This document shows, piece by piece, positions 34,856 to 49,418 of a DNA stretch of 64,000 bases (positions within the stretch are counted from its first letter, which is position 1; the number at the start of each line of letters is the position of its first letter). Position numbers and translations under genes: made by a program. A model generated the notes under the pieces. The model saw only the letters and a list, made by a program, of their open reading frames with translations, made no database searches and was not told the DNA's origin. This DNA is from Blastocatellia bacterium (lineage in GTDB: Bacteria; Acidobacteriota; Blastocatellia; Chloracidobacteriales; JADJPF01): assembly GCA_025057015.1 (NCBI GenBank), contig JANWYG010000003.1:62001-126000 (forward strand). Reading direction: 5' to 3'.

Positions 34856-35006
34856 ATTCAACCCAAACCACGCGTGGGGACAATCTTTCATGCATCATTT
34901 TCGTTCTCCTTTGGTGCGGTTCACCCCCACGCGCGTGGGGACAATACGTCACAGGCGTAAGTGCTTTGGGCTCAATGCGGTTCACCCCCACGCGCGTGGG
35001 GACAAT
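34856..35006 (-). CRISPR. Type I-E CRISPR array with three repeats and two spacers
   Basis: Two identical 29-base repeats (34917-34945, 34978-35006) and one degenerate repeat (34856-34884), separated by two 32-base spacers (34885-34916 and 34946-34977). In the minus-strand sense the repeat runs ATTGTCCCC...GTGAACCG, the usual I-E polarity, so the array is transcribed leftwards from a leader on the right. The divergent repeat then sits at the distal (oldest) end, where degeneration is normal: its last 14 bases match, the first half does not. Repeat and spacer lengths are those expected for I-E. Confidence 0.92.
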
Positions 35007-35102
35007 ACTGGAAAATAAAAGACTTACGGCTCGGATCCTTGTTTATGTATGGATCCTGCCTGGTGTTTCAGCTACCAGCTTTGTTTATTTGAGGCTTTTG
35101 AG
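35007..35102 (-). promoter_or_regulatory. CRISPR leader
   Basis: About 96 bases between the cas2 stop and the first repeat, AT-rich next to the repeat (TTTTATTTTCCAGT on the minus strand). In I-E systems the leader carries the array promoter and the integration signals. No clear promoter hexamers or IHF site were verified. Confidence 0.6.
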
Positions 35103-35402
35103 TTAGCTAAGCTTATGCTCATCACTGGCAGACCTAACGCGGATCAGCTGTAGTCCGTCAAAGTTTACCACTTCTCTAGAGGTATCTCCAAACATTTCTA
35201 TGGAAAAACCTTGTTCGCTAGCTGCCTTGCAGATCAGAATAGCTCCGCCGTCCTTGACTTTTGTTTTAATCATCTTCCACAGGGTGTCTTGGACAAGGGC
35301 GGAGAGGTTACCGACGAAAACGCCAGTTTTAACTTCTAGCATCCATCTAGTTAGCTCTCCTCGGACGCTAGCTGGCACTTTTTCAAGTATTATGACTAAC
35401 AT
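35103..35402 (-). CDS. cas2: Type I-E Cas2
   Basis: 99 residues. Matches the I-E Cas2 (CT1978 type): MLVIILEKVPASVRGELTRW, GVFVGNLSALVQDTLWK and a C-terminal tail. Works with Cas1 as the spacer integrase, where Cas2 is the central dimer. It overlaps the cas1 end by 7 bases and is the last gene before the leader. Confidence 0.95.
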   Translation of the reverse strand: MLVIILEKVPASVRGELTRWMLEVKTGVFVGNLSALVQDTLWKMIKTKVKDGGAILICKAASEQGFSIEMFGDTSREVVNFDGLQLIRVRSASDEHKLS

Positions 35403-36346
35403 TTTTCTTCCTCGAAGTCCTCAGCAAAGTTTGTTCCGCCCTTGACTTCTCCCTCTGGATCCCAGAGGTTACTAGCAGCAGCAGGGTTTTGGTTAAATTC
35501 GGCTTCTTGTGCGGTAACGGGATTGGTGTCTAGACCTAGAGCTTTTTCTATGTCCGGGATGATTCTTTGCAAGAGTTTTGTCTGATAGAACTTATCGCGG
35601 CAAGCGTGACGAACGCGTGTCTCTACATCTTGGGTTCCTTCTGCAGCTGTTTGAAAAGCTATGGGTACGGTCACGTCTACTTTGTAGAGGTCAGCTATGT
35701 CGTATACGAAAGAGAGCATCTTACCCGTATGGATGAAGCCTAGAGCTGGAGAGAAGCCTGCTGCCACTATAGCGGCGTGGCATATGCCGTAGAGGCAGCT
35801 ATTTGCGGCAGAAAGTGCACGGTTAATTGGGTCAGACTTATTCCAATCGTGAGTGCTGAAGCTACGGCCCTTCCATTTAACGCCATACAATTGGCTATAT
35901 TTGAAGTAGGCTTCGCGTACTCGTATACCTTCTTTGCCGCGTATTTGGCGCAGGCTAAGGTTAGGTTCGAGGGGTTCAGGAAAGCGCATTTCATACATGC
36001 GTCTAACTACCTGCATTCGCAGTTCTGGGTAAGAGACCATTCTTGCCTGGTGCAACAGCCTATGTGATGAGCGGGTTTCTCCTAGACCTTGGGCGTAGAA
36101 CCTAACTGAAGCTTCTCCTACCCATGAGATAAGGCATCCATTTTCGGCTAATGTTAGCACTGCGGCATGGGTAATTGAAGTGCCAGGACCTAGCATTAAC
36201 AAGTTTAGTGAGGAGCAAGGAACAGTGGTTTTACCTTCCTTGTCATGCAAAGCGATTGCTTTACTATCTCTATCTACCTTTTTATGTTCGATGTAGAGGT
36301 AGCTTAGGCTATCTCTGACTTTTGGAAGAATGTGTAGGTCATCCAT
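35396..36346 (-). CDS. cas1: Type I-E Cas1 integrase
   Basis: 316 residues. The catalytic residues can be placed by comparison with the E. coli protein: Glu139 (in RGKEGIRVRE), His206 (in GFIHTGK) and Asp216/Asp219 (in FVYDIAD). All are intact, so spacer acquisition should be possible. The C-terminal 40 residues are charged and variable. It starts 3 bases after cas6e and overlaps cas2 by 7 bases. Confidence 0.96.
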   Translation of the reverse strand: MDDLHILPKVRDSLSYLYIEHKKVDRDSKAIALHDKEGKTTVPCSSLNLLMLGPGTSITHAAVLTLAENGCLISWVGEASVRFYAQGLGETRSSHRLLHQARMVSYPELRMQVVRRMYEMRFPEPLEPNLSLRQIRGKEGIRVREAYFKYSQLYGVKWKGRSFSTHDWNKSDPINRALSAANSCLYGICHAAIVAAGFSPALGFIHTGKMLSFVYDIADLYKVDVTVPIAFQTAAEGTQDVETRVRHACRDKFYQTKLLQRIIPDIEKALGLDTNPVTAQEAEFNQNPAAASNLWDPEGEVKGGTNFAEDFEEEKC

Positions 36347-36349
36347 ATA

Positions 36350-37054
36350 CTAGCTCCTTTCGTAGGCATTGGCTATTGAAAGTAGGCCAAATCCGTAGGC
36401 TTTACCACTTCCGATTCCGTTTTCTAGGCATTTTTTGAACTGCTGTGGATTTGTTATTTGCAACTCTCCCTCGAAGAGGACTGAGCCGAAGGTCAGTTTC
36501 TTATTTTTACCGGATATCTTGTCGTAGCGCACGCCATAAATTTTCGCTTCAGGGTTGACATTTAAGTTAGGTGTGTCTTTCCTAATTTTCAGCGAGCACA
36601 CTCTAAACCCGTTGGCTGCTGCTTTTCTTTGTAGCCAAGCTACTTGCTCTTCTTTTCTATACAGCTCTACGCGTCTGCCGTTTTGCTTTATGCTGTTAGG
36701 TAGCGATTTAGTCTCTATTTTGCGCGTGGGATTTGCGCGCAGTCGAAAGGCGAGGTATCTATTTTCATATAGGACCTCTTCTGTGTAGAGCTTCGAGACA
36801 TCTTTACAGAGTGGTTCTTGTAGAAGGTATCCTTGGGGCAAGTTCGACCAATCTGGGAGTATCTTTGATTGAGCTAAGATGTAGAGCTGTCCAGGGTTAT
36901 TCTCGATGCGAAAAAGCAGACCGAACTCTGCTCTAGCGCTGCTTTCCGCTTTAGGGAAAGCGGAAAGCAAGCGTTGGTGTATTTGCTGGCAGTCATTTAG
37001 GTCACGCTGCACAAACTTATTTCGTGGGTTTAGGAGAAGTTTAGACAGATACAT
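36350..37054 (-). CDS. cas6e: Type I-E crRNA endonuclease Cas6e
   Basis: 234 residues; the E. coli protein has 199. Cas6e cleaves the array transcript at the repeat hairpin and stays bound to the 3' handle. A conserved early histidine is present (CQQIHQRLLSAFP, residue 26), matching the catalytic His of the family, and the glycine-rich end loop reads GIGSGKAYGFG. The cas5 stop overlaps its start by 14 bases. Confidence 0.93.
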   Translation of the reverse strand: MYLSKLLLNPRNKFVQRDLNDCQQIHQRLLSAFPKAESSARAEFGLLFRIENNPGQLYILAQSKILPDWSNLPQGYLLQEPLCKDVSKLYTEEVLYENRYLAFRLRANPTRKIETKSLPNSIKQNGRRVELYRKEEQVAWLQRKAAANGFRVCSLKIRKDTPNLNVNPEAKIYGVRYDKISGKNKKLTFGSVLFEGELQITNPQQFKKCLENGIGSGKAYGFGLLSIANAYERS

Positions 37055-37736
37055 ATTTTCCTCCTTTGAGGTTAATGAACTTGGTGCTGCAGTAGCGTGG
37101 CAGAAAGGTACGCTTGCTGAGAGAGAATGGTTGGTCGTAGCGCATTTCCGGACCTTTAGGATCTTCTAAGACTACCCGTAAGTGCTCAGGCGGTTCCGCT
37201 TTTCTACCATCTGCGATGCCTTGCCAACTACAGAAATTCAGATCCAGCAGGGACTCCTCCAGATTTCCAGGGTACAGCTCATCTTTGAAGCTTACAGGCA
37301 GGCTGGGAACGAAAGCTTTGCGACCCAAGTACAGTTGCCACTTAGGAAACTTTAGGGCATGGTTCAATTGATGTAGGAGATTAGGGTCTTTTCCTTCTAA
37401 TCCAACTACGAAGCAGGCATCGCTTAAATAGTACTTAGGGGAGGTTTCGGTTTCTTTCGGTTGACCACCTGATACCTGAGCTATATTTTGCGCTGTCTGG
37501 TAGTCATATTTGACTATTCCTTCACGGTCGACTCGCACGGCCATTCGCAATGTAGCGATGCTACGGAACTCCTCGTCGTCTATCGTGGATTGGTCGCGGG
37601 GTTTGCCAAGGGCAGCGCATAAAAGACCTATTACGCCGCTCTTAGAAGGTTCTGTAGAAGTTTCCCGGATGGAGAATCTTGATAAGGTTCCCCAGGATTG
37701 CATCGGGCCTACGAGTCTTATAAGTAGAGTTGGCAT
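37041..37736 (-). CDS. cas5e: Type I-E Cascade subunit Cas5e (CasD)
   Basis: 231 residues. Begins MPTLLIRLVGPMQSWGTLSR, the typical I-E Cas5 start, followed by TEPSKSGVIGLLCAALG. Caps the 5' handle of crRNA in Cascade. It follows cas7 by 14 bases and overlaps cas6e. Confidence 0.94.
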   Translation of the reverse strand: MPTLLIRLVGPMQSWGTLSRFSIRETSTEPSKSGVIGLLCAALGKPRDQSTIDDEEFRSIATLRMAVRVDREGIVKYDYQTAQNIAQVSGGQPKETETSPKYYLSDACFVVGLEGKDPNLLHQLNHALKFPKWQLYLGRKAFVPSLPVSFKDELYPGNLEESLLDLNFCSWQGIADGRKAEPPEHLRVVLEDPKGPEMRYDQPFSLSKRTFLPRYCSTKFINLKGGKYVSV

Positions 37737-37750
37737 GGCCTATCTCCTTA

Positions 37751-38926
37751 CTACTGAGTTTCTAGGTATTTGAGGGTTTTGGCTAATAGCTCCTTGACGT
37801 TATCGACGCGACTATCTCCGAGGTTTGGCAGATCTTCCTCATAGAGGTTGACGTAGACTTTTTGTATGTTTTCTTCTCCGTAGGCGTGGGCTAACTGTCC
37901 CCAGTACCTGTCGAGCCTTTTGATAGACTCGTTAACTATATCGCTGCCTTTGACAGGGTTGACGAAGGCGTTAGCGAGGGACCAGAAGCCTCTCGGACGG
38001 ACAGTGACTAGGATAAAAGAGGGCAAGTTGTGTGCTGCCATGCTATTTTGTTTGCCTGTGGGTATGGCATGAACGGCAGCATCTATGAAGGCAGCGACGG
38101 TAGCTTTCGCAAGTTCTGTATCACCTTGAAGGTTCTCGTTTAGTTGTTCTACGTCGATGTTTGCGTAGCGGTAGAAGCAAGCCGAGTTGAACTCTATTGT
38201 ACCCATCATACCTGCGCCGGCCTGGCCTAGTGGTTGTAGATCATCCACAGCAGTATAGAAGTCAAACTCTACACCGACTTTATGTGTAGATATTGCGTGG
38301 GCTACTTGGGAGGCGGCACTTATTTTTTTTGTTGGCAAGTCGGCGAGCATTCTTCCAAAGAGTGCTAAGTCGGCTGCCCTACCGCCGTCTAACACACTTT
38401 GGATTGCTTCTTTTAGGTCCTTTGGCAGCTTCTCTTCTGATTTTTCCTTGGTTTTTTTGGATTTGGACTCTTTCGGGTTAGCGTCTTCGTCCTTCTTCAG
38501 CTGCGAGGCGACTGCCTCAAGTTGATCCCAGTAAGAGAGGCATTTATCGACGAGGTTTTCGATTTCCTTTGCACCTAGGAAGACAAGGTACTCTAGTTCA
38601 TTTTCTTTTTCCCTTATTTTTAAACCCAGGCCCTTGAGGAGAGCTTGTACTACTTTTTGAGCTTGGTTACGGTCTTGTCCTTTCTTTTCTAGCGTTTCTA
38701 CCAGAGTATCTGGCAGTAGCCGAGTGCGCTTTGCGAAGAGGGCTTTTTGTTCGTTGGTAAATATTTCTCCTTTAGCAAAGTATTCGCGTATTGCGCGTTT
38801 GAGACATTGACTAGAAATACGAGCGCGTCTTACTGCTCCGAATTCGCAGTCTTTGGGTGTTCCTGTGTCGCTACGGTTTAAGTTGGAAGGTGCGAAATTC
38901 TGTATTAGGTGTAGTTCTACTTTCAT
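37751..38926 (-). CDS. cas7e: Type I-E Cascade backbone subunit Cas7e (CasC/Cse4)
   Basis: 391 residues, slightly longer than E. coli CasC (363). The start (HLIQNFAPSNLNRSDTGTPK) and ARISSQCLKRAIREYF are diagnostic of Cse4. The extra length includes a lysine/glutamate-rich insert around residues 148-175 (PKESKSKKTKEKSEEKLPKD). Six copies form the crRNA-binding backbone. Nine bases separate it from cse2. Confidence 0.95.
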   Translation of the reverse strand: MKVELHLIQNFAPSNLNRSDTGTPKDCEFGAVRRARISSQCLKRAIREYFAKGEIFTNEQKALFAKRTRLLPDTLVETLEKKGQDRNQAQKVVQALLKGLGLKIREKENELEYLVFLGAKEIENLVDKCLSYWDQLEAVASQLKKDEDANPKESKSKKTKEKSEEKLPKDLKEAIQSVLDGGRAADLALFGRMLADLPTKKISAASQVAHAISTHKVGVEFDFYTAVDDLQPLGQAGAGMMGTIEFNSACFYRYANIDVEQLNENLQGDTELAKATVAAFIDAAVHAIPTGKQNSMAAHNLPSFILVTVRPRGFWSLANAFVNPVKGSDIVNESIKRLDRYWGQLAHAYGEENIQKVYVNLYEEDLPNLGDSRVDNVKELLAKTLKYLETQ

Positions 38927-38935
38927 TTTTCCTCC

Positions 38936-39454
38936 TTAAATTTCTTCAGTTTTTTCAGCTTGTCTGGTTTCTTCAGTTTCAATTTCTTTCCAGAAAGATG
39001 TCGCCCACTGGCGTTGGACTTTGTAGTCGTCTCGTTGCCAGTCTAGGATGTCGTTTAGCAGTTGAAGCCAGTTGATATGTACTTCTTTGGATTTGAGTAG
39101 GTTGACTGCCTGCCTAAGGTGTTGTGGTAAGTCTTCGAAATTTGAGTTGAGAATTGCCACGAATCGTCTTTCAGTGCTCTCGCTTTCTTGTCGCAGTCGT
39201 AACTGAGCAAAAGATGCACCGAAGTTATATTTTTCTGCGCTTTCTGACGGGTATAGGCCATATAGAGTAGCGACCAAGTACAGCGCGTATTCTTCAAGCT
39301 CGCTTTTGGCTTCTGCTATAAAGCGACCTATTACGCTATATACTTCCATGCTTTCTCCAGGTGGTTTGCCTACTCCGCGTCTGAGCTTTGCCAGCGAGCC
39401 GCGGTCTTCCTTCTTGTGGAGTTCGAGCAAGAAGTCTATGAAGTCTTTTTTCAT
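38936..39454 (-). CDS. cse2: Type I-E Cascade small subunit Cse2 (CasB)
   Basis: 172 residues, all-helical, as expected for CasB. Recognised from position and from the segments DRGSLAKLRRGVGKPPG and LPQHLRQAVNLLKSKEVHINW. Two copies stabilise the R-loop. It lies between cse1 (12-base gap) and cas7. Confidence 0.92.
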   Translation of the reverse strand: MKKDFIDFLLELHKKEDRGSLAKLRRGVGKPPGESMEVYSVIGRFIAEAKSELEEYALYLVATLYGLYPSESAEKYNFGASFAQLRLRQESESTERRFVAILNSNFEDLPQHLRQAVNLLKSKEVHINWLQLLNDILDWQRDDYKVQRQWATSFWKEIETEETRQAEKTEEI

Positions 39455-39466
39455 AGTTTTCTCCTT

Positions 39467-41035
39467 TTAGGGTGTTTGCTGTGAATCAAAGTAGTTGATG
39501 TACTGCTTTTTTACAGCTGCGAGCGCCATATTGAACTTGCTTTCGGCCTGAACTACGGCCTTTAGGTCTTTGGCTGTAGACCCTAGACTGCTTGTTACGT
39601 GTCTAAGTGCTTGTCTTGCTGTTTTCTCGAGTAGCTTCGCCCATAGCGGCAACTGTTTTCTCCCGAATATGGTTGTTTCTTCTTCAAGGTCAAGGACTAG
39701 ATCGTTTGGTAGATCGACAAGTAGCTGCTTGAAGTGCAGACCAAGCTTGGTCCAGTAGAAAGAGCTGGCTCCTAATCCTTTTGCAAATTTTTTGACAAGA
39801 TCTTTATCAATATTTTGTCTCTCGTCCAGCAAGGTAGCTGAAAGCTTTTCTACTGCTTGAGAGAGCAGTGTTTCCACTTCTTCGGCCAAGTTAATTGCTT
39901 CTTTGAGAGCATTTCTAAGGTTTGCGTCAGTTAAATAAACAAGTGGTAGTGGTAGCACTTCTCTAGACCATAGATAGACTTTTGCTTTGTCTGCTAGTAG
40001 GCCGACGAGCATGAAGCGGTAAGCTTTGCTGGCTACTAGCTCACCTCTGCTCTGTCGTTTTTCTATTTCAGCGAGGTGGTTAAATACGAGGGGGCGTTGG
40101 ACGGAAGCATCTTCCGCCTCGACGAAGAGCGTGTGGCTATCGCGCCAGAGTACCTTGTCTTCATTTAGCTTTTTTTCCAACATTCCCCTTTGGGGATTCT
40201 TGTAATAGCACTTGAAAGGGTCGTGGTAGAAGTCATCTTTGAGCTTTAAGTTTTGCATTAGTGCGTAGTCTGTAACGCCTGTATGGTCACCAAATACGAG
40301 GATGCGCCTGCTTTGCCAGGTTAGATAGTCAACGTAGCCGTATGGAACGTTACCGTTCTTATCAGGTTCTCTAAACTGTTCCTGTTCCCAAGCGGGTAGG
40401 TCAGGAGCTATCTGGGGCAGCGGACTTTCTTCATTGTAGGGAATCAAGTTCAAGGCAAGGGTTTCGAAAAGGTTATTCCCAAGCACCATTACGGTATAGC
40501 CTCCTGCTAATGGAGCGTTGGAAAGATTAAACGGCTTACTATTACCACCTCCTAGCGAGAAAGCTTGCCGTGCGAGCAAATACCTTGCAGTCATTGCAGG
40601 GGAGAACTTTTCCGTGGATCCTTGGAAGCTATGGTCGCACCATGTTCCGCTGGTAGCGGATTCGTTTGGTAGCAGGACTATGGATTTCTTTTCGGCATTT
40701 TCATCGAGTAACTGTTTGGATTGATAGAACGGACGCTCTTTGTCGAAGAGATCAAACCTATGTTTCCATCGATCTAGATACTCGCTGATAGCTTTTGCAT
40801 CCCACTTGCCTAATTTCCAGAGCTCTGTCCATTGGTCAAAATCTTTTGGACCAAAGACTCTGTGGAGAACTGCTAGCAATAGTCGGTGAATTGCTACGAC
40901 TACTAGTGGCGAATTATCTGTTATTTCGTTAATTTCATGCGCGTGCAGTAGAGCGTCTTTTAAGCTCACTTCACTAGCTTGGCCGTCTTTAATGCATGCG
41001 ATCCAGGGGTTATCTACTAGGTTGAAGGATTGCAT
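39467..41035 (-). CDS. cse1: Type I-E Cascade large subunit Cse1 (CasA)
   Basis: 522 residues (E. coli 502). Starts FNLVDNPWIACIKDGQASEV, the usual CasA opening; residues around LFDKERPFYQ and LARQAFSLGGGNSKPFNLSN are also typical. Cse1 recognises the PAM and recruits Cas3. It starts 3 bases after the cas3 stop, so translation is likely coupled. Confidence 0.95.
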   Translation of the reverse strand: MQSFNLVDNPWIACIKDGQASEVSLKDALLHAHEINEITDNSPLVVVAIHRLLLAVLHRVFGPKDFDQWTELWKLGKWDAKAISEYLDRWKHRFDLFDKERPFYQSKQLLDENAEKKSIVLLPNESATSGTWCDHSFQGSTEKFSPAMTARYLLARQAFSLGGGNSKPFNLSNAPLAGGYTVMVLGNNLFETLALNLIPYNEESPLPQIAPDLPAWEQEQFREPDKNGNVPYGYVDYLTWQSRRILVFGDHTGVTDYALMQNLKLKDDFYHDPFKCYYKNPQRGMLEKKLNEDKVLWRDSHTLFVEAEDASVQRPLVFNHLAEIEKRQSRGELVASKAYRFMLVGLLADKAKVYLWSREVLPLPLVYLTDANLRNALKEAINLAEEVETLLSQAVEKLSATLLDERQNIDKDLVKKFAKGLGASSFYWTKLGLHFKQLLVDLPNDLVLDLEEETTIFGRKQLPLWAKLLEKTARQALRHVTSSLGSTAKDLKAVVQAESKFNMALAAVKKQYINYFDSQQTP

Positions 41036-41038
41036 ATT

Positions 41039-43795
41039 TCATTCTCCTTTGATCACTATTCCTAGTTGATCATCTAGTTTTAGAAGGTATTTACCGACTG
41101 TAACTTCGCCTGCTGAATTGACTACTAGTAGGCGATGATGCCTTAGCAGGGCGTTCTCTTGCCATTCAGGTGGAGGACTCTGATCTATAAGCTCGTAGAC
41201 TATTCTCGGACTTGAGATTGTGACTGACCTTTGTAACAAGTACTTTGTTTCAGCAATGTTGCGGGCACACTTGCTTTCGGCTTGCTTCTCTTGCAGAATG
41301 ACTACCTGTATGCTGGGGGATTCATCATCTCGAGTGCAGGCCTGCAGGCTTTTATGAAATTCTGGATTATCTTCTTCTAGGAAGGAACTAAACTCGTTGA
41401 GGAGATTTTTATTTAGCGGAGAGGCTATTCTCTTGTTGCGGGCTCTGTGTTCTTTATCTTGTATTCTATTCCTTAATTTTTTCTCTGTTGCTTCCCAGTG
41501 ATTTGACAGTGACTCATCCGTACAGGGCTGGTTGTTGCTATAGACGTATTCTGTCAATTGGGAAACATCTTCTGGTATTCGTATCCGTTGTAGCTTGTCA
41601 ATTGCTAGTTGGGAGCGCAGCAGTATGTGTTCATCATAGATGAGGCTGCTGTTTCCAAAACCTTCTTGGCTTGAGATGATCCACAAAGTGGGTTCTGAGA
41701 GTCTTTGTGGTCGCTGTTTTCTGACGTGTCTGTGCAATCTACCTGCGCGTTGTAGTAGTAGGTCGACTGGAGCATGTTCGGATATCATCAGATCGAAGTC
41801 TAGGTCCAAGCTTTGCTCGATTACTTGGGTAGCCACTAAGATAGCTCGCTTTGGGCGGATTACGGGGTGTTCTTTGCCTTGGGAATCGACCACTGAAGAA
41901 TTTTCTTTTCCGAAGCGTATCAGGCAACGTAGCTCGCGTTTGGCTCGGTCTGTGTATAGAAACCTCGCATGCAACAGATCTACCTCAGGTAGGGAGTCAT
42001 TGGAAGTACCTGGAAAGTGCTGCCTTAGCTTTAGGAACACTTCCTGCGCTCGCTCGACTGTGTTACAGATAACCGCAACGCAACCTCCATCGGCGAGCGC
42101 TTCTTTTAGGGCTTCGCCCAAGGATTCCAAGGTGACAGAGCAAAGGTTTATGAGCTTTTGCTGTGAGGTGCGTATCTCGATTGTACCTATGTCTTGTTTA
42201 GTTGCCCAAGTAATTGAAGGATAAGAACCTGAGGTATGCCAACTGCCTTCTTCAGAAAGCCCTTTTAGATACGCTTTTACGAGGCTATTGCGCTTGTCAG
42301 CTGGTAAAGTAGCCGACAGGAGTATTACTGGAGAGCCTAACGTTGCTAGCCAGTTCAAAAGTCGTTCAAGTAGAACAGACATATATGCGTCATAGGCGTG
42401 TACTTCGTCAATTATCACCGTCTTATGAGCTAAACCGAAAAGTCTTACGAATACATGTTGGACCTGAAGGACTGCAAGTAATGCTTGATCGACTGTACCT
42501 ACTCCGAAAGGAGCTAGTAGGCCTCGCTTGCGGTGAGTGAACCATTCAGCAGCGACTACGCTTGCGAGGCAGCTATGGGTTTGCTCGTCAGCATATATTT
42601 CTGACATAGATAGTAGTTTCTCGTGTTGCTTTAGCAGAGTTTCGAATTCTGCTGAAAGCGATGCATGTCCGTGCAGTAGCTGCAGAAGGACTTTTTCGTG
42701 AGGGTAGCGGGCTGCTAGAAAGTTCTTTACTCTGGAGAACATCTGGTTACTTGTCGCTTGTGTAGGCAATGCAAAGTAGATACCGCGCTGCTTTAGGGTG
42801 GCATTCCAAAAGTCTGCTAGAAACATTGCTGCTTCGGTCTTGCCCTCGCCCATAGGGGCTTCTATTACTACTATGCCTGGTGAGCGAAGCTTTTCGGCTA
42901 GCGTCTCTACAGTGTCTTGTAGGTTGTTCTTAACTATGTTTGGAAAAAGTTCACAGAACCGCTTGTGGTATATTGCTTCTGGTTGGTCTAACCAGCCGAG
43001 TTTTGACAAAGCGGCTCTAGCATTATTGAAAGCTTCTTCTTTGTAAGAGTACAAGTCTATTTGCGGTATGTTTGCTTGATCAGTGACCTTGCACTTGAAG
43101 AACTCTGTGTTTGAACCTATCCAATCTGCTACAGATACAAGGCCAGCTAGGATCAAAGCTGAGGCATTGTCTATGTCTAATTTTGGATCAAGCGTTAAGG
43201 TAGGAACGCACAACACTTCGTGTAAGACTTTGGCAAGTTCTAGTCGAGCGGTTTTCCAACTTTTTCCTCCTAGCTTTGAGTCGTTGCCTTCTATGTCTTT
43301 TATTTCGGAAGAATTAGGAAACTTGCCGTGGTGGCTACCCGTTATAATCCCCATCTTTTCAGCTAACTTCCAGCCGAAACCAAAGTCGGTGAGTATCCGC
43401 TCAAGTGCGATTGCGGTCACGTAGCCATGAGGTGCTTGTTTTGGAGGAGGAAGTGGTAGTTGTGCTCTTTCGAACTTTGTCCCTTGGTAAATTTGGTGGA
43501 TTTGCTGTTCAGTATAGCGGTGCGCAAATGGCGGGGAAGCTTTTCCTAGATCGTGTAGACCGGCAATCCAGGAGACTATTTTGCCTGTTTGCTCTATACC
43601 CGTTATGCTCGTTAGGCCTAAAGCACAGCTGATACGCTCTTTTAATGCAGTTGATAGCACTTTGTCCCACATGGTTTGCGTAACAGCTGCCACGTCTATC
43701 ATATGGCAGAGAAGAGGATGAAATGCTTTGGGATAATTTATCTTATCGTGTGTAGTCTTTGCCCAGAACCTAAGTAGTAAATGTGTAGCAAACAT
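41039..43795 (-). CDS. cas3: Type I-E effector nuclease-helicase Cas3
   Basis: 918 residues (E. coli 888). N-terminal HD nuclease domain with HDLGKASPPFAHR (HD at about residues 82-83) and the earlier histidine region FHPLLCHMIDVA. SF2 helicase follows with Walker A MGEGKTEAA, DEVHAYD and LLSATLP. This is the DNA-degrading partner recruited by Cascade. First gene of the cas operon; AAAGGG lies close to its ATG. All key motifs look intact. Confidence 0.95.
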   Translation of the reverse strand: MFATHLLLRFWAKTTHDKINYPKAFHPLLCHMIDVAAVTQTMWDKVLSTALKERISCALGLTSITGIEQTGKIVSWIAGLHDLGKASPPFAHRYTEQQIHQIYQGTKFERAQLPLPPPKQAPHGYVTAIALERILTDFGFGWKLAEKMGIITGSHHGKFPNSSEIKDIEGNDSKLGGKSWKTARLELAKVLHEVLCVPTLTLDPKLDIDNASALILAGLVSVADWIGSNTEFFKCKVTDQANIPQIDLYSYKEEAFNNARAALSKLGWLDQPEAIYHKRFCELFPNIVKNNLQDTVETLAEKLRSPGIVVIEAPMGEGKTEAAMFLADFWNATLKQRGIYFALPTQATSNQMFSRVKNFLAARYPHEKVLLQLLHGHASLSAEFETLLKQHEKLLSMSEIYADEQTHSCLASVVAAEWFTHRKRGLLAPFGVGTVDQALLAVLQVQHVFVRLFGLAHKTVIIDEVHAYDAYMSVLLERLLNWLATLGSPVILLSATLPADKRNSLVKAYLKGLSEEGSWHTSGSYPSITWATKQDIGTIEIRTSQQKLINLCSVTLESLGEALKEALADGGCVAVICNTVERAQEVFLKLRQHFPGTSNDSLPEVDLLHARFLYTDRAKRELRCLIRFGKENSSVVDSQGKEHPVIRPKRAILVATQVIEQSLDLDFDLMISEHAPVDLLLQRAGRLHRHVRKQRPQRLSEPTLWIISSQEGFGNSSLIYDEHILLRSQLAIDKLQRIRIPEDVSQLTEYVYSNNQPCTDESLSNHWEATEKKLRNRIQDKEHRARNKRIASPLNKNLLNEFSSFLEEDNPEFHKSLQACTRDDESPSIQVVILQEKQAESKCARNIAETKYLLQRSVTISSPRIVYELIDQSPPPEWQENALLRHHRLLVVNSAGEVTVGKYLLKLDDQLGIVIKGE

Positions 43796-43944
43796 GAACC
43801 CTTTAAATACCTGTAGAAATTACACGGCATTATAGTACATAGTGATTCTCGATAAAAGGCGAAAACATTCTTAACTTAGTTAGCACTAAGAGAAGAGAAA
43901 GTTTTTAGTAAATGACGAAAGCGGTTGGAAACCCTTTCTATTGA

Positions 43945-44403
43945 CTAAATCCTATGCATAGCGTGGAAGAGGTCTTCGCGTTGGAAGTAGATGCGGACGC
44001 CTAGTTGTTGTGAGAGAGCGCGTAGCTGTTCGCGCACTTGCATCATCTCGGTGCTTTGTTCTGATGCACCAACTATCATTATCATGGCAAACTTGCCTTT
44101 AACTACTGTTTGGTTGATGTCGATGATGCTGTAGCGTGCTTCGGCAAGGAGGCTTGCTACAGCAGCTACTATACCGGGTTGATCAGTGCCAAAGACTGAA
44201 ACTACGAAATGTCTTTGAGAGTCAGGCTTTGCTGTTGTTGGTGTACTAGCTGGTTGCGAGGGTTGTTGCAGCAGCGGATAGATTACATCGACGACGTCAG
44301 TGACTATTGCTTCGACGGTCTTACGGTCAGCTTTTTCTCCTAGTCGGTTATAGACCGCACGAGTGATTTTGTATATAGTTTCCTCTATCTGTTTAGGATC
44401 CAT
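43945..44403 (-). CDS. ACT-domain protein in the BMC operon
   Basis: About 152 residues from the ATG at 44403 (TTG at 44409 is also in frame). Residues about 1-45 form a helical, amphipathic segment (PKQIEETIYKITRAVYNRLG and EAIVTDVVDVIYPLL), followed by a Ser/Pro/Thr linker. The remaining 85 residues form an ACT domain (FVVSVFGTDQPGIVAAVASL, AMIMIVGA), GcvR-like. ACT domains usually bind small ligands, often amino acids. Last gene of the BMC operon, directly after the preceding gene. The N-terminal helix resembles BMC encapsulation peptides; this is inference. Confidence 0.82.
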   Translation of the reverse strand: MDPKQIEETIYKITRAVYNRLGEKADRKTVEAIVTDVVDVIYPLLQQPSQPASTPTTAKPDSQRHFVVSVFGTDQPGIVAAVASLLAEARYSIIDINQTVVKGKFAMIMIVGASEQSTEMMQVREQLRALSQQLGVRIYFQREDLFHAMHRI

Positions 44404-44409
44404 AGTCAA

Positions 44410-45696
44410 TCAGTTCAGTCTTTTTGTAATTCGACCTTCAAGCTGGGTATTTTGCTCTTCCTCTGGCGATTTACGAGCTGCTGTAATACCGACCAGCGGA
44501 GAGCCTTTGCGCTTACGCAGCGTAAGAAGTAGTAACTCTATCTCTTGAGTTTCTTCAAGTGATTCGTCTATTTGCGAGTAGACCTTTTCTGCCTTTCTTA
44601 GAGCATTTGAGATGTGATCTAGCGTACGGCGCAGCTCCTTTAGCATCTGGCGATAGATAGTTACCGGAGTACCTAATTCATCGCTAAGCGGCTCGGTAGT
44701 ATCAAACAGCTCTGATAAGTCATCTTGGTAGAACTCTACTTCACCTTGTAGCCGTTCGCACGCAACCCGCATGTTTACAAGGGCGCGGTGAACACGTTCC
44801 AGTTCGGTGATAACGTCAATAGCCGATTGAGCATACCTCTCCAGTTCGTCTGTTATTCTTTCTACTGCGGTTATCCACCTTTCTTTTATTATGTCTGAAA
44901 CATCTGCATCTCCTGTTTTGGCAGGAAGAATGTGGCGGTTGAGGCTGGCTGTTTGACGCGTGTTTTCAAGACGTTGAACTTCACCTGAGGACCGAGGAGG
45001 AAGGGGAGAGATGGCAGCAATAGCTTGTGCTGCACAAGCTTTTAGTTTCTGAGCTGTTTCTAGATCTATGCCAGCAGTTGCTTGTATGTCTCTTGTAGCT
45101 GTGTATGCTAAATCACCCAGCTTGGTTAGGCCGACTGAAAACAGTTTCTGAAGGACTTCTGAATCTATGTCTTTGAAGTAAACAGCTAGGTCTGCGATCA
45201 TCAGTTCTGCCGCAGAGGAAGTAGTGCGGGTATCTGTTGTATCTGAGGCAACGCTACGGGATATTAACCTGGTTAGCTCCTTATAATCTGTGGAGAGGTT
45301 TCTTAGATCTTTTTTGGATAGGAGTCGCTTTTTTCCTTGGCGGAATGCTGTAAGTGGCTGCTCTATTGATTTCAGTACGTCGTAAATGTCGTTGTAATGA
45401 ATTTCTTCTGCGGCCATAATCAGCGGCTTGAGGGCTCCTATGCACATATCTATGGTACGTTCTGAGTGATCACCTGCGATGATAGAGCGGATGGACTTAC
45501 CAACTGGCGTGATGAACTGGGATACGATGGCGCGGAACATCTCCTTGAGCTCTGCTTCTACTTTGCGATCATGGGCTAGGGAAGGGCCGCTGCTAGACTC
45601 CCCCTGGTTTATAGGCAGCTCTTCTACTGCCTGAGCTACTTCTTCTTCGCGCAGGTCTTCAAGGCCAGGTAATTCTTTTTTATCCTTCTCATTCAT
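44410..45696 (-). CDS. Hypothetical protein with HhH-like motif in the BMC operon
   Basis: 428 residues, not recognised. No membrane segment. A helix-hairpin-helix-like stretch lies near residues 180-215 (LFSVGLTKLGDLAYTATRDI, then GIDLETAQKLKA). The second half is a long helical coiled coil (about 275-400, for example ITELERVHRALVNMRVACERL). It starts 1 base after the aldehyde dehydrogenase stop and ends immediately before the ACT gene, so it is part of this four-gene operon. Whether it enters the compartment is unknown. Confidence 0.7.
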   Translation of the reverse strand: MNEKDKKELPGLEDLREEEVAQAVEELPINQGESSSGPSLAHDRKVEAELKEMFRAIVSQFITPVGKSIRSIIAGDHSERTIDMCIGALKPLIMAAEEIHYNDIYDVLKSIEQPLTAFRQGKKRLLSKKDLRNLSTDYKELTRLISRSVASDTTDTRTTSSAAELMIADLAVYFKDIDSEVLQKLFSVGLTKLGDLAYTATRDIQATAGIDLETAQKLKACAAQAIAAISPLPPRSSGEVQRLENTRQTASLNRHILPAKTGDADVSDIIKERWITAVERITDELERYAQSAIDVITELERVHRALVNMRVACERLQGEVEFYQDDLSELFDTTEPLSDELGTPVTIYRQMLKELRRTLDHISNALRKAEKVYSQIDESLEETQEIELLLLTLRKRKGSPLVGITAARKSPEEEQNTQLEGRITKRLN

Positions 45697-45697
45697 T

Positions 45698-47530
45698 TCA
45701 GTCCCTATTCAATGCTGGCGACGCTATGATGTTGAAGACTCTGTTTGCTTCACCCAGTTCTCTAGCCGAAGGTGTGATAATCGTCTTGGCATTAACGTAG
45801 ATCTTCTGCTTGTCTCTTATGGCTCGCTTTACATCTTCTTCGCAAACAAAAGCTACTGGTTCGGGTTTTTGTTCTGGAGCTTGTTGCTTTTGTTCAGTTT
45901 TTTGCTCAGTTTTGACCTCAGGCTGAGCAGGAGGTGGAGGCGGCTGCTGCTGCGGTGGTTGTGCTGGGGTCTGGTGGACGGGTTCTACTGGTTGGTGACG
46001 GCGAGCTTTGCGTTCTGCTAGGAAAGCTTCTACAAGTCGCGATATCTCGGCTTCGCTGAGGTGCTCTGTTTCAGTATGATTTTTTTGTGCTGAAGCTACC
46101 TTGACTTCTTTAACTCCAGTAGCAGCTACTGCTGCTCTCGCTACGGCTGATACAGTGCTTATGGGAAGAGGCCGACTTCTTGTTACCGGCCGAGTTTCAA
46201 ACGCTATTCTTTTTATGTCCATTAAGTGGAGTGGGGAGACGTTGTCAGAGGTGACGTTTCCACCCCAACTGCCACAGCCAAGCGTCATGCTTGGCGGCAA
46301 ATCAGTTGAAAAGCCTATGGCACCGTGCGTTGTCGGTGAGTTGACTATTATTCTCGATGCCGGTTGACGCAGGCCGAACTGGCGTATTATTTCACGGTTC
46401 TGTGAATGTATGCCTATGGTATGTCCCATCCCGCCGTAGCGCAGGATCTGGTGGCATAGTTCACTGCCCAACTGCCAGTTTTCTGCCGTATAGTAGGCAA
46501 GTATGGGGGATAGTTTTTCCATTGACAGCGGATGCTCACGCCCTACACCATCCATTTCTACTATCAGCAGACGAACGTCTGCAGGGATCTTAAAGCCTGC
46601 CATTTCGGCTATGACTTGCGGAGCCTTGCCGACTATCTGCGGATTAAGTCCTCGGGTTGGAGTGACTACTATCTTTTCGAGCAGGGCTTTTTCTTGTGGT
46701 GAGCAAAAGTATGCTCCCTGAGACAGCAGTTCAGCTCGGACGCGTTTGTCTATTGCTTGTTCGCATACGATGGCTTGCTCAGAAGCACAGATAGTACCGT
46801 AGTCAAACGTCTTGCCGGCGATTACGTCTGCTACAGCTTTTGGAATATCTGCAGAGGCTTCTATAAGTACCGGCACGTTGCCTGGACCTACTCCGAAGGC
46901 TGGTTTACCAGAGCTATAGGCAGCACGGACCAGGCCAGTACCTCCTGTAGCTAAGATTACCGACGTGAGTTTATGCTTCATCAACTCTTCTGTACCTTGC
47001 AGGGTTGGGACTGACATGCAGCCTATCAAGCCGGAAGGAGCACCGGCGGCTTCGGCAGCAGCTCGCATCACGCGGGTAGTCTCATTTATGCACTGATTAG
47101 CAGAAGGATGTGGGCTAAGTACTACTCCGTTTCGAGACTTGAGAGAGATGAGAATCTTAAAAATTGCTGTTGAAGTAGGATTTGTTGAGGGAATTATTGC
47201 TGCGACTACGCCGCGTGGATCGGCTATCTCTATTAGGGTATCCGTCTCGTTTATAACTCCTACGGTCTTCAGATTACGGAAGAAGTTGTGAACATCTTCT
47301 GCAGCAAAGCGATTCTTTTCGGCTTTGTCGGCAGGTATTCCGTATCCAGTTTCCTCGTGGGCTAGTTTGCCGAGCCGATCTTTTTCTGCCAGAGCTGCTG
47401 CGGCCATTGCTGCTACTATGGCGTCTACCTTCTCTTGTGAAAAAGTGGCAAATACTTTTTGTGCTTCGTGTGCAGCCGTTACTAAATCGCGTGCTTGCTG
47501 AACTGAAATTAGATCCTTATCAGTGGGCAT
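45698..47530 (-). CDS. BMC-type CoA-acylating aldehyde dehydrogenase with C-terminal extension
   Basis: 610 residues, against about 465 for EutE/PduP-type enzymes. Residues 1-470 are the acylating aldehyde dehydrogenase core with catalytic cysteine in YGTICASEQ (about residue 257) and the nucleotide-binding region [16 protein letters not shown]. The tail has three parts: an amphipathic helix [20 protein letters not shown] (491-510), like BMC encapsulation peptides; a Pro/Gln-rich linker (about 512-558); and a short folded segment with [18 protein letters not shown], similar from memory to the TPxAR segments in EutT/EutQ proteins. Converts an aldehyde plus CoA and NAD+ to acyl-CoA inside a microcompartment. 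The BMC-H shell gene precedes it by 13 bases. Confidence 0.9.
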
Positions 47531-47543
47531 CCTAATCCCTCAA

Positions 47544-47870
47544 TTAGCTTTTATCTTTGTTGGAAGATTTTTTGCTTATGCTCTCGACGCTGATTCCGTT
47601 TTCGGCAAGTACTCGTTCTACTTCCGCATGCGGTCTTGGTATGACATGTACGCTTATAAGTTCGCCTACGCGTCGAGCGGCTGCTGCTCCGGCATCGGTA
47701 GCTGCTTTGACTGCCCCTACGTCGCCACGTACGAACACGGTGACGTAGCCGGCTCCTATATAATCTTTACCTATTAAGGTGACGTTTGCCGCTTTGACCA
47801 TGGCGTCAGCTGCCTCTACGGCTCCTACAAATCCTTTGGTCTCTATCATCCCCAAAGCTTCAAAAGACAT
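47544..47870 (-). CDS. Bacterial microcompartment hexameric shell protein (BMC-H)
   Basis: 108 residues, a single BMC domain of the PduA/EutM/CcmK type. Diagnostic: [46 protein letters not shown], then [15 protein letters not shown]. Hexamers tile the protein shell and their pores pass small metabolites. A 15-residue charged tail extends past the usual end. GGAGG lies before its ATG. It is the first gene of the operon with the aldehyde dehydrogenase, and the only shell gene in this window; no vertex (BMC-P) gene was seen. Confidence 0.95.
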
Positions 47871-48086
47871 TCTGTTCCTCCGGCAGTTAAGCGTTCAAAA
47901 ATTAAGGAGTTAAATGACTGATTACAAGCAACAAGCTAGCAAAAGCACTATGTTGAGTCAAGAACTTTATGGCAGGTCTGATTGTCTTTGCTTCCTCTGT
48001 TGCTAAAGGTAGCATCAGCTGAGAAGCAATTGTATAATTCTTTCAAAGAATGAGACCTGCTGCGGTAGGTGCAGGAGGGAGGATAA

Positions 48087-49418
48087 ATGGTTAGGGCGAA
48101 GCTAGCGATCGTCTCGCTTTCGGCAGCCATAGCGTTCTATGCTATTGTAGGCGGATTCTTGTCTGTACAGAAGAACGTCTTTGCAAAGGGTGACCCATAT
48201 GTTCAGCTAAGGATTTTCGGAGACGTTCTTAGGCATATAGTGAAGGATTACGTGGACGAGCCGGATTTAGAGAAGGTACGTATAGGTGCTTTGCGCGGTC
48301 TTGCCGAAGGGCTAGATCCGTACAGTGCCTACCTTACGCGGGAGCAGGTTAAAAAGTATAAGCCTGTTTCTATGGAACAGCCGGAAACTGGATTAGTGCT
48401 TTCCAAAGTTGCGGGATATATATATGTTGTGTCGGTACTAAGAGGCTCGGCTGCTGAGAAAGCTGGGCTGCGCAGCGGAGATTTTATAGAATATCTCTTG
48501 GGTTTTGCTACGCGTGACATTAGTCTCTATGACGCCCAAGAATTGCTTTCTTCGGCTGCTGGATCCGAAGTCGAGATGAAAGTGTTTCGTCGCGGTCGGC
48601 CTTATAAAGTCAAGTTCAAGGCTGCAAAATCAGTTCAGCCTGCTATAGAGGCTTCTGTGCTTGAACCAGGTATCGGCTATGTTCGTGTCACTTCCTTAGC
48701 AGAGGGTAAGGATTTAGAGCTTGCTGACCGACTCGAAGAGCTAAAAAGCAAAGGCATTTACAAGCTCATACTGGATCTGCGTGGTACTGCAAACGGCCGG
48801 ATATCTACTGCTGCAGCAGCGGCAAACCTATTTATAGGTAGTGGTGTGCTGGCAAAGGCTATAGGACAAAACGAGACCGTGGCAGCTTCTTTCAGTGCGG
48901 AGCGCTCAAAGTGCAGGTTCGAAGGGCAGCTTGTCTTACTGATAGATAAGAGCACGGCTGGCGGAGGTGAAGTATTGGCTGCGGCTATTGCCTCTGCTAA
49001 GCGCGGTGAGCTTGTTGGCGAACGTACCTTTGGGGCTGGCTCTGAGCAGCGACTGTTTGAGCTTAAGGATGGGTCTGGCCTGTTGCTTACTGTAGCAAAA
49101 TATGCTGATCCAAACGGTAAGCCTTTTATGGGAGAAAATCCTGGTCTGTTGCCTACTGTGGAAGTAAGATCTGCGGAGGTATCTGAAGCATTGCTGCCTG
49201 AATCCGAAGATCAGGTCATTGAAGAAGACTCTAACTATCCTCCGCTGCCCGTAGAACCAGCGCCAACAGAAGATCTGCAACTTAAGAAGGCACTTGAAGT
49301 CATTAAAAACCAAACGCAGCAGCCTGGTGAAAGGAAAGTTGCTGGCGAGCTTTCTTCACCTTACGGTGTTCCTGTGCCAGTAAACAAACGTGCAACACGC
49401 CTTGGAACCAGGCTGTAG
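48087..49418 (+). CDS. S41-family protease homologue lacking catalytic residues
   Basis: 443 residues. N-terminal signal anchor (about 5-25), an N-terminal helical region (PYVQLRIFGDVLRHI), a PDZ domain (about 100-175) and an S41 core (about 190-370). The S41 nucleophile motif SASASE is replaced by TAGGGE (residue 292 is Gly where the Ser belongs), and the Lys of FGKG is Ala (FGAG, residue 317); spacing between the two positions is 25 residues, as in CtpA/Prc. Both catalytic residues are therefore absent. Likely a non-catalytic, peptide-binding PDZ protein. AGGAGGGAGG precedes the ATG. Confidence 0.87.
   Translation: MVRAKLAIVSLSAAIAFYAIVGGFLSVQKNVFAKGDPYVQLRIFGDVLRHIVKDYVDEPDLEKVRIGALRGLAEGLDPYSAYLTREQVKKYKPVSMEQPETGLVLSKVAGYIYVVSVLRGSAAEKAGLRSGDFIEYLLGFATRDISLYDAQELLSSAAGSEVEMKVFRRGRPYKVKFKAAKSVQPAIEASVLEPGIGYVRVTSLAEGKDLELADRLEELKSKGIYKLILDLRGTANGRISTAAAAANLFIGSGVLAKAIGQNETVAASFSAERSKCRFEGQLVLLIDKSTAGGGEVLAAAIASAKRGELVGERTFGAGSEQRLFELKDGSGLLLTVAKYADPNGKPFMGENPGLLPTVEVRSAEVSEALLPESEDQVIEEDSNYPPLPVEPAPTEDLQLKKALEVIKNQTQQPGERKVAGELSSPYGVPVPVNKRATRLGTRL

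What the first reader, a model, noticed from the sequence alone, without database searches (positions are those of the whole stretch)
43945..44403. ACT-domain protein with encapsulation-peptide-like N-terminus in a BMC operon
The first 45 residues form one or two amphipathic helices followed by a Ser/Pro/Thr linker, as seen in cargo proteins, then a GcvR-like ACT domain. An amino-acid or metabolite sensor inside a microcompartment would be new to me.
Basis: inference. Interest (0 to 1): 0.55.

Follow-up and report, generated by a model that had tools for sequence, protein, structure and literature searches.

The report
ACT regulatory protein with microcompartment-targeting-like tail
A small metabolite-sensing (ACT) protein that elsewhere stands alone has, in bacteria that build protein organelles, a conserved two-helix tail that probably carries it, with a partner enzyme of unknown function, into the organelle.

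Summary
The gene is real: 152 aa, minus strand 44403-43945, last of a tight operon BMC-H / acylating aldehyde dehydrogenase / 428-aa protein / ACT (gaps 13, 1, 6 nt). Residues 65-152 are a UPF0237-type ACT domain; residues 3-46 are two confidently predicted helices, then a disordered linker. The genome is a blastocatellian acidobacterium; the operon fits the aldehyde-dehydrogenase satellite of the published ACI microcompartment. Most likely the ACT subunit, through its helices, tethers a DUF711-ACT complex to the shell. Not shown: shell binding, complex formation, ligand. Open caveat: 43 genomes of another phylum carry the extension and only one could be tested for BMC (positive). New variant of a known kind.

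The parts
43945..44403 (-). Gene for the 152-aa ACT protein (ATG at 44403)
44260..44403 (-). Residues 1-48: two-helix N-terminal module, proposed shell-targeting part
   Evidence: AF2 helices 3-21 and 27-46; conserved in 66 of 66 aligned acidobacterial sequences; no Pfam or PDB relative
44212..44259 (-). Residues 49-64: Ser/Pro/Thr linker, low confidence, variable in length among relatives
43948..44211 (-). Residues 65-152: UPF0237-type ACT domain
   Evidence: Foldseek and phmmer best match 1zpv
44410..45696 (-). 428-aa protein with a NusA-C/helix-hairpin-helix-like stretch; no Pfam family; same operon
45698..47530 (-). Acylating aldehyde dehydrogenase, BMC type, 610 aa with long C-terminal tail
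45998..46057 (-). Encapsulation-peptide-like helix of the aldehyde dehydrogenase ([20 protein letters not shown]), residues 492-511
47544..47870 (-). BMC-H shell protein, 108 aa; keeps AMVKAA (23) and [10 protein letters not shown] (56), the stretches that form the cargo-peptide groove in PduA
   Evidence: groove from PMC11157265 passages

Best explanation
This is a microcompartment-dedicated form of the UPF0237 ACT protein. Its ACT domain is probably the small, ligand-sensing (regulatory) subunit of the DUF711/UPF0210 enzyme. Its N-terminal two-helix module, on a flexible linker, probably docks on the inner face of the shell and/or joins the cargo condensate, so that the DUF711-ACT pair works at or inside the ACI-type sugar/aldehyde metabolosome. 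Since DUF711 itself has no extension, the ACT subunit would act as sensor and targeting adaptor in one. Shown: gene, domains, operon, conservation of the module, co-occurrence with BMC and with DUF711. Inferred: the DUF711-ACT complex, shell docking, ligand sensing.
For: (1) Linkage: of 53 ACT loci in 52 other Blastocatellia genomes, 50 have a shell gene on the same strand of the fetched stretch, 46 the aldehyde dehydrogenase, 42 DUF711 within 1.5 kb, typically BMC-H / AldDH / BMC-P / ACT / DUF711 / BMC-H; in another acidobacterial family 6 of 6 loci are BMC-H / AldDH / ACT / DUF711. (2) Genome level: 53 of 162 class genomes have the protein and all 53 have BMC; the 9 without BMC have none; 16 of 16 extended carriers elsewhere in the phylum have BMC, while the 2 carriers without BMC have the bare ACT; the one Rhodothermia carrier found in the named scan has BMC. 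(3) 66 loci from other phyla encode ACT alone (usually 89-90 aa), and 8 of the 49 of those genomes tested have BMC. (4) On ACT-domain columns only, 108 extended rows are one side of a branch against 69 bare rows (support 90.9). (5) DUF711 co-occurrence: 49 of 53 ACT genomes, 1 DUF711 genome of that kind without ACT; adjacent in 64 of 66 bare loci; own genome has one DUF711, unlinked, 456 aa, no extension. (6) The operon's shell protein keeps the residues that bind cargo peptides in PduA. (7) In two genomes of the other phylum an aldehyde dehydrogenase of this type with a C-terminal encapsulation-peptide-like helix lies near (L285, 882 bases; L348, roughly 13 kb).
Against: No binding data. The module is about 45 residues and two helices with a conserved turn, unlike a typical single 15-20 residue helix, so it may be a folded domain with another job. 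The helix pattern is not specific: it is in 66 of 66 helix-1 and 63 of 66 helix-2 sequences, but also in 60 of 66 of an ordinary ACT helix. The hydrophobic moment is clear for helix 2 (mean z 2.87) but not helix 1 (0.60); the test also fails on the aldehyde dehydrogenase peptide (-0.76), so it decides nothing. 100 of 153 BMC-bearing Blastocatellia genomes lack the protein, so the organelle does not need it. In 10 acidobacterial genomes (families f11, f37) and in 44 loci of the other phylum no shell gene lies on the fetched stretch. Extension and BMC are both clustered on the tree, so counts are not independent.
Confidence: 0.52

Rival explanations
1. The two-helix module is not a targeting signal but an oligomerisation or partner-binding domain of a cytosolic ACT-DUF711 regulator, for instance one that senses BMC pathway intermediates and whose genes sit in the BMC locus for co-expression.
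For: The module is well conserved including the turn between the helices, is predicted with high confidence, is shared across two phyla (hhalign probability 93, E 2.9e-7), and is present in many loci with no shell gene nearby.
Against: It is absent from 66 of 66 bare loci, 64 of which have the same DUF711 partner, so it is not needed for that partnership; every extended carrier that could be tested has BMC (70 of 70).
Confidence: 0.3
2. A GcvR-like transcriptional regulator of the BMC operon, not a luminal protein.
For: ACT_6 is also the domain of GcvR (recalled); weak match to the GcvR model; Foldseek also finds 1u8s.
Against: Single ACT domain, 21.8 bits against a cut-off of 267 for GcvR; best relative is UPF0237/1zpv; no DNA-binding domain recognised.
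Confidence: 0.08
3. Bystander: an ordinary ACT-DUF711 housekeeping pair that happens to sit next to BMC genes.
For: The pair is widespread without BMC and not linked to shell genes in several lineages.
Against: Linkage in 50 of 53 blastocatellian loci and 6 of 6 in another family, and an N-terminal module that bare relatives lack.
Confidence: 0.1

Closest known systems
UPF0237 / PRK00194 ACT protein (S. pneumoniae, PDB 1zpv) with DUF711/UPF0210 (SP0239, PDB 2ha9)
   Same: ACT domain over residues 65-152 and gene pairing with DUF711. That 1zpv is the neighbour SP0238 is recalled.
   Different: The bare forms seen here lack the N-terminal module; here the pair is tied to a BMC locus.
Encapsulation peptides of metabolosome cargo (PduP, PduL and others; PMC12339742 and PMC11157265, passages)
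   Same: Terminal helix joined by a disordered linker; shell protein with the binding groove in the same operon.
   Different: Two helices in about 45 residues with a conserved turn; on an ACT regulatory domain instead of an enzyme.
ACI-type BMC of Acidobacteria (Sutter et al. 2021, PMC8217296, passages)
   Same: Acidobacteria; aldehyde dehydrogenase in a satellite locus; class II aldolase with BMC-H and BMC-P elsewhere in this genome.
   Different: The passages read do not mention ACT or DUF711; they speak of 'several proteins of unknown function', and the supplement could not be read.
Carboxysome-associated PII-like protein CPII (recalled)
   Same: A small ligand-sensing regulatory protein tied to a BMC.
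   Different: Different fold and organelle; only a search listing was seen, the original paper was not in it.

Membership tests
BMC cargo with encapsulation peptide | Terminal amphipathic helix of about 15-20 residues plus flexible linker | tested here: inconclusive
   Helices and linker predicted, but two helices; pattern and moment tests do not discriminate
BMC cargo with encapsulation peptide | Present only together with BMC shell genes | tested here: inconclusive
   70 of 70 testable carriers have BMC, but 42 further carriers could not be tested
BMC cargo with encapsulation peptide | Extension absent from non-BMC homologues | tested here: met
   Absent in 66 bare loci from other phyla, 2 acidobacteria without BMC and 1 further bare locus
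BMC cargo with encapsulation peptide | Binds shell or is packaged | not testable with these tools
   needs co-purification or imaging
UPF0237 (PRK00194) ACT family | Score over the NCBIfam cut-off of 74 bits | tested here: met
   93.8 bits, profile 3-90 of 90
UPF0237 (PRK00194) ACT family | Pairing with DUF711/UPF0210 | tested here: met
   Adjacent in 64 of 66 bare loci; DUF711 in the own genome but unlinked
GcvR (NF008612) | Model score over 267 bits | tested here: not met
   21.8 bits
ACI-type BMC | Acidobacteria; AldDH on a satellite locus; class II aldolase with BMC-H and BMC-P elsewhere | tested here: met
   with PMC8217296 passages; the class is an inference from contig lengths
ACI-type BMC | BMC-P triplet and hydroxyacid dehydrogenase in the main locus | tested here: inconclusive
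   Three BMC-P genes, on two contigs; dehydrogenase not searched for

The most novel reading that the evidence does not exclude
A PFL/ribonucleotide-reductase-fold enzyme of unknown function (DUF711) is delivered to a metabolosome in trans by its own allosteric ACT subunit, which carries a tandem encapsulation helix: sensor, regulator and targeting adaptor in one chain, present in the ACI organelles of soil Acidobacteriota and perhaps in the scattered-gene BMCs of the Rhodothermia phylum.
Probability: 0.33. Interest if true: 0.78.

Novelty: new variant of a known kind. Interest (0 to 1): 0.56.

Why it matters
Metabolosome cargo known to me is mostly enzymes; a ligand-sensing subunit that is itself targeted would mean that flux can be sensed at or inside the shell. 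It also gives a functional lead for DUF711/UPF0210, a widespread family whose function was unknown in the one paper seen that discusses it (PMC4390871, passages), and a candidate extra cargo for the uncharacterised ACI organelle of soil Acidobacteria.

Tried and rejected
Helical-moment and helix-pattern tests were tried as proof of an encapsulation peptide and rejected as not discriminating: the aldehyde dehydrogenase control fails the first, an ordinary ACT helix passes the second. A search for the N-terminal module in Pfam (best E 0.03 among 19 members), in the PDB (best E 0.068) and on other proteins of the fetched loci (nothing below E 1.8) found no other carrier. GcvR membership rejected. 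A bystander reading was considered and disfavoured because of linkage and co-occurrence. Promoter and terminator scans of 43700-48200 gave no more than shuffles. Literature: 'bacterial microcompartment' with 'ACT domain' 0 papers; 'encapsulation peptide' with 'ACT domain' 0 papers; UPF0210/DUF711/UPF0237/COG2848/COG3830/PF05167 9 papers, listing seen, one read in passages; SP0238/SP0239/2HA9/1ZPV 8 papers, listing seen. Most subscription papers and all supplements are not covered. The last flanks (10 genomes of the Rhodothermia phylum, up to 20 kb further on each side) gave no shell gene.

Full report
What is there. The finding's coordinates hold one gene on the minus strand, ATG at 44403 and stop at 43945, 152 aa. 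Residues 65-152 match ACT_6 (1.3e-17) and the UPF0237 model PRK00194 over its cut-off (93.8 bits against 74; that PRK00194 is UPF0237 is recalled). The best solved relative is 1zpv, an ACT protein of S. pneumoniae, by sequence and by fold. AlphaFold2 on 28 relatives gives helices at 3-21 and 27-46, a disordered linker and a well-defined ACT domain (mean pLDDT 89.7, pTM 0.58). The low pTM fits domains that are not fixed relative to each other.

Context. The gene ends an operon of four: BMC-H 47870-47544, acylating aldehyde dehydrogenase 47530-45698, a 428-aa protein with a weak NusA-C-like stretch, and ACT; gaps 13, 1 and 6 nt. The dehydrogenase has a long tail with an encapsulation-peptide-like helix at residues 492-511 between low-complexity linkers, kept in relatives as REEIAAIVDRFLAGR or similar. 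Elsewhere the genome has BMC-H and BMC-P next to a class II aldolase and a Rex-like repressor (L029), a double-domain BMC protein after an RnfC-like protein (L031) and two BMC-P genes (L030). Contig lengths of relatives equal those of records titled Blastocatellia or Pyrinomonadaceae, so the genome is an acidobacterium of class Blastocatellia (inference). Sutter et al. 2021 (PMC8217296, passages) describe the organelle type ACI: exclusive to Acidobacteria, class II aldolase, aldehyde dehydrogenase consistently on a satellite locus, several unknown proteins. The operon fits such a satellite.

An alignment of 12 relatives was searched in all 162 class genomes offered: 54 match, of which 53 are the full protein (one split by a frameshift in a draft, G133) and one, G003, is only a weak hit. 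All 53 have BMC genes; the 9 class genomes without BMC have none. In 396 genomes spread over the phylum, 29 match at E 1e-12; 18 are outside the class. Of these, 16 have the extension and all 16 have BMC; the 2 without BMC carry the bare ACT. The one named-collection scan (553 relatives, the best 80 kept) gave 13 acidobacterial loci, which were left out of the counts because several are evidently the same contigs as G genomes, 66 bare loci in other phyla and one Rhodothermia locus with an extension. BMC was tested in 50 of those 67 genomes: the Rhodothermia genome has it, 8 of the other 49 do. Pooled, 70 of 70 extended carriers and 8 of 51 bare carriers have BMC (Fisher p 5e-25; not corrected for relatedness). 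A tree of the ACT columns alone places 108 extended rows on one side of a branch from 69 bare rows, support 90.9, below the tool's own mark for firm support.

The gap in that test. In 394 genomes of the Rhodothermia phylum 44 match; all but one (G911) show an N-terminal extension by eye. Its profile is homologous to the acidobacterial one (probability 93, E 2.9e-7). No shell gene lies on the fetched stretches (mostly about 8 kb each side) in any of the 44, nor within up to 20 kb more in the 10 genomes looked at further; BMC was tested genome-wide in one (G512, positive). Two of these genomes have an aldehyde dehydrogenase of the same type ending in an encapsulation-peptide-like helix near the ACT gene. 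Papers seen in passages place FRAG BMCs, with scattered genes, in Ignavibacteriae and a PVM-like BMC in Melioribacter, which fits, if those taxa are among the carriers, but does not close the gap.

The partner. DUF711 (PF05167, UPF0210; 2ha9) lies within 1.5 kb on the same strand in 64 of 66 bare loci, 42 of 53 blastocatellian loci and 18 of 18 other acidobacterial loci, and on 37 of 44 stretches of the other phylum. In the class, 49 of 53 ACT genomes have it and one genome (G132) has a DUF711 of that kind without ACT; of the 4 ACT genomes without it, 3 have ACT within 1 kb of the contig end and 1 (G078) does not. Five genomes with a lower-scoring DUF711 were set aside as another subfamily. 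In the own genome DUF711 is single and unlinked, 456 aa. The family has the ten-stranded barrel of ribonucleotide reductases and glycyl radical enzymes but no radical glycine was found and its function is unknown (PMC4390871, passages). In class genomes without ACT and DUF711 the rest of the satellite (BMC-H, AldDH, often a second BMC-H) is still there (L324, L326, L327), so the pair is an accessory gained or lost together.

Mechanism. The ACT domain without extension goes with DUF711 in bacteria mostly without BMC; the extension appears in BMC carriers; the DUF711 proteins seen in the BMC loci have no obvious extension of their own. The simplest reading is that the ACT subunit has gained a module that attaches it, and DUF711 with it, to the organelle. 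The shell protein of the operon keeps AMVKAA at 23 and [10 protein letters not shown] at 56, the groove that binds cargo peptides in PduA (PMC11157265 passages). A synthetic study reports that more encapsulation-peptide repeats increase partitioning (PMC12339742 passage), which would suit a two-helix module. Against a plain encapsulation peptide are its length, two helices and conserved turn, and my pattern tests did not discriminate. I put the targeting reading at about one half and a non-targeting domain at about three tenths.

Verdict. Observation confirmed, interpretation partly supported, more interesting than stated because of DUF711 and the clean contrast between bare and extended forms, and still without any biochemical evidence.

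Noticed in passing
window 34915-43795, minus strand: Type I-E CRISPR-Cas genes (cas3, cse1, cse2, cas7, cas5, cas6, cas1) start 149 nt after the ACT gene; two copies of a 33-nt repeat with spacing 61 lie at 34915-35008.
   Followed up: partly
window 44410-45696, minus strand: 428-aa operon protein without a Pfam family, conserved in the two nearest relatives (51 and 48% identity) and hit again in the G017 locus; possible scaffold or cargo.
   Followed up: partly
window 45734-45850, minus strand: After its encapsulation-like helix the aldehyde dehydrogenase has a conserved end ([27 protein letters not shown]) present in nearly all acidobacterial relatives printed, role unknown.
   Followed up: no
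L324 5605-6021, L326 5315-5686, L327 7668-8012: In genomes without ACT and DUF711 a zinc-ribbon protein sits beside the aldehyde dehydrogenase of the same BMC satellite (Pfam run on the L324 copy only).
   Followed up: no
L030 4442-8280: Two consecutive BMC-P genes follow a gene that looks like pyruvate phosphate dikinase in the own genome (the dikinase name is from reading the sequence).
   Followed up: no
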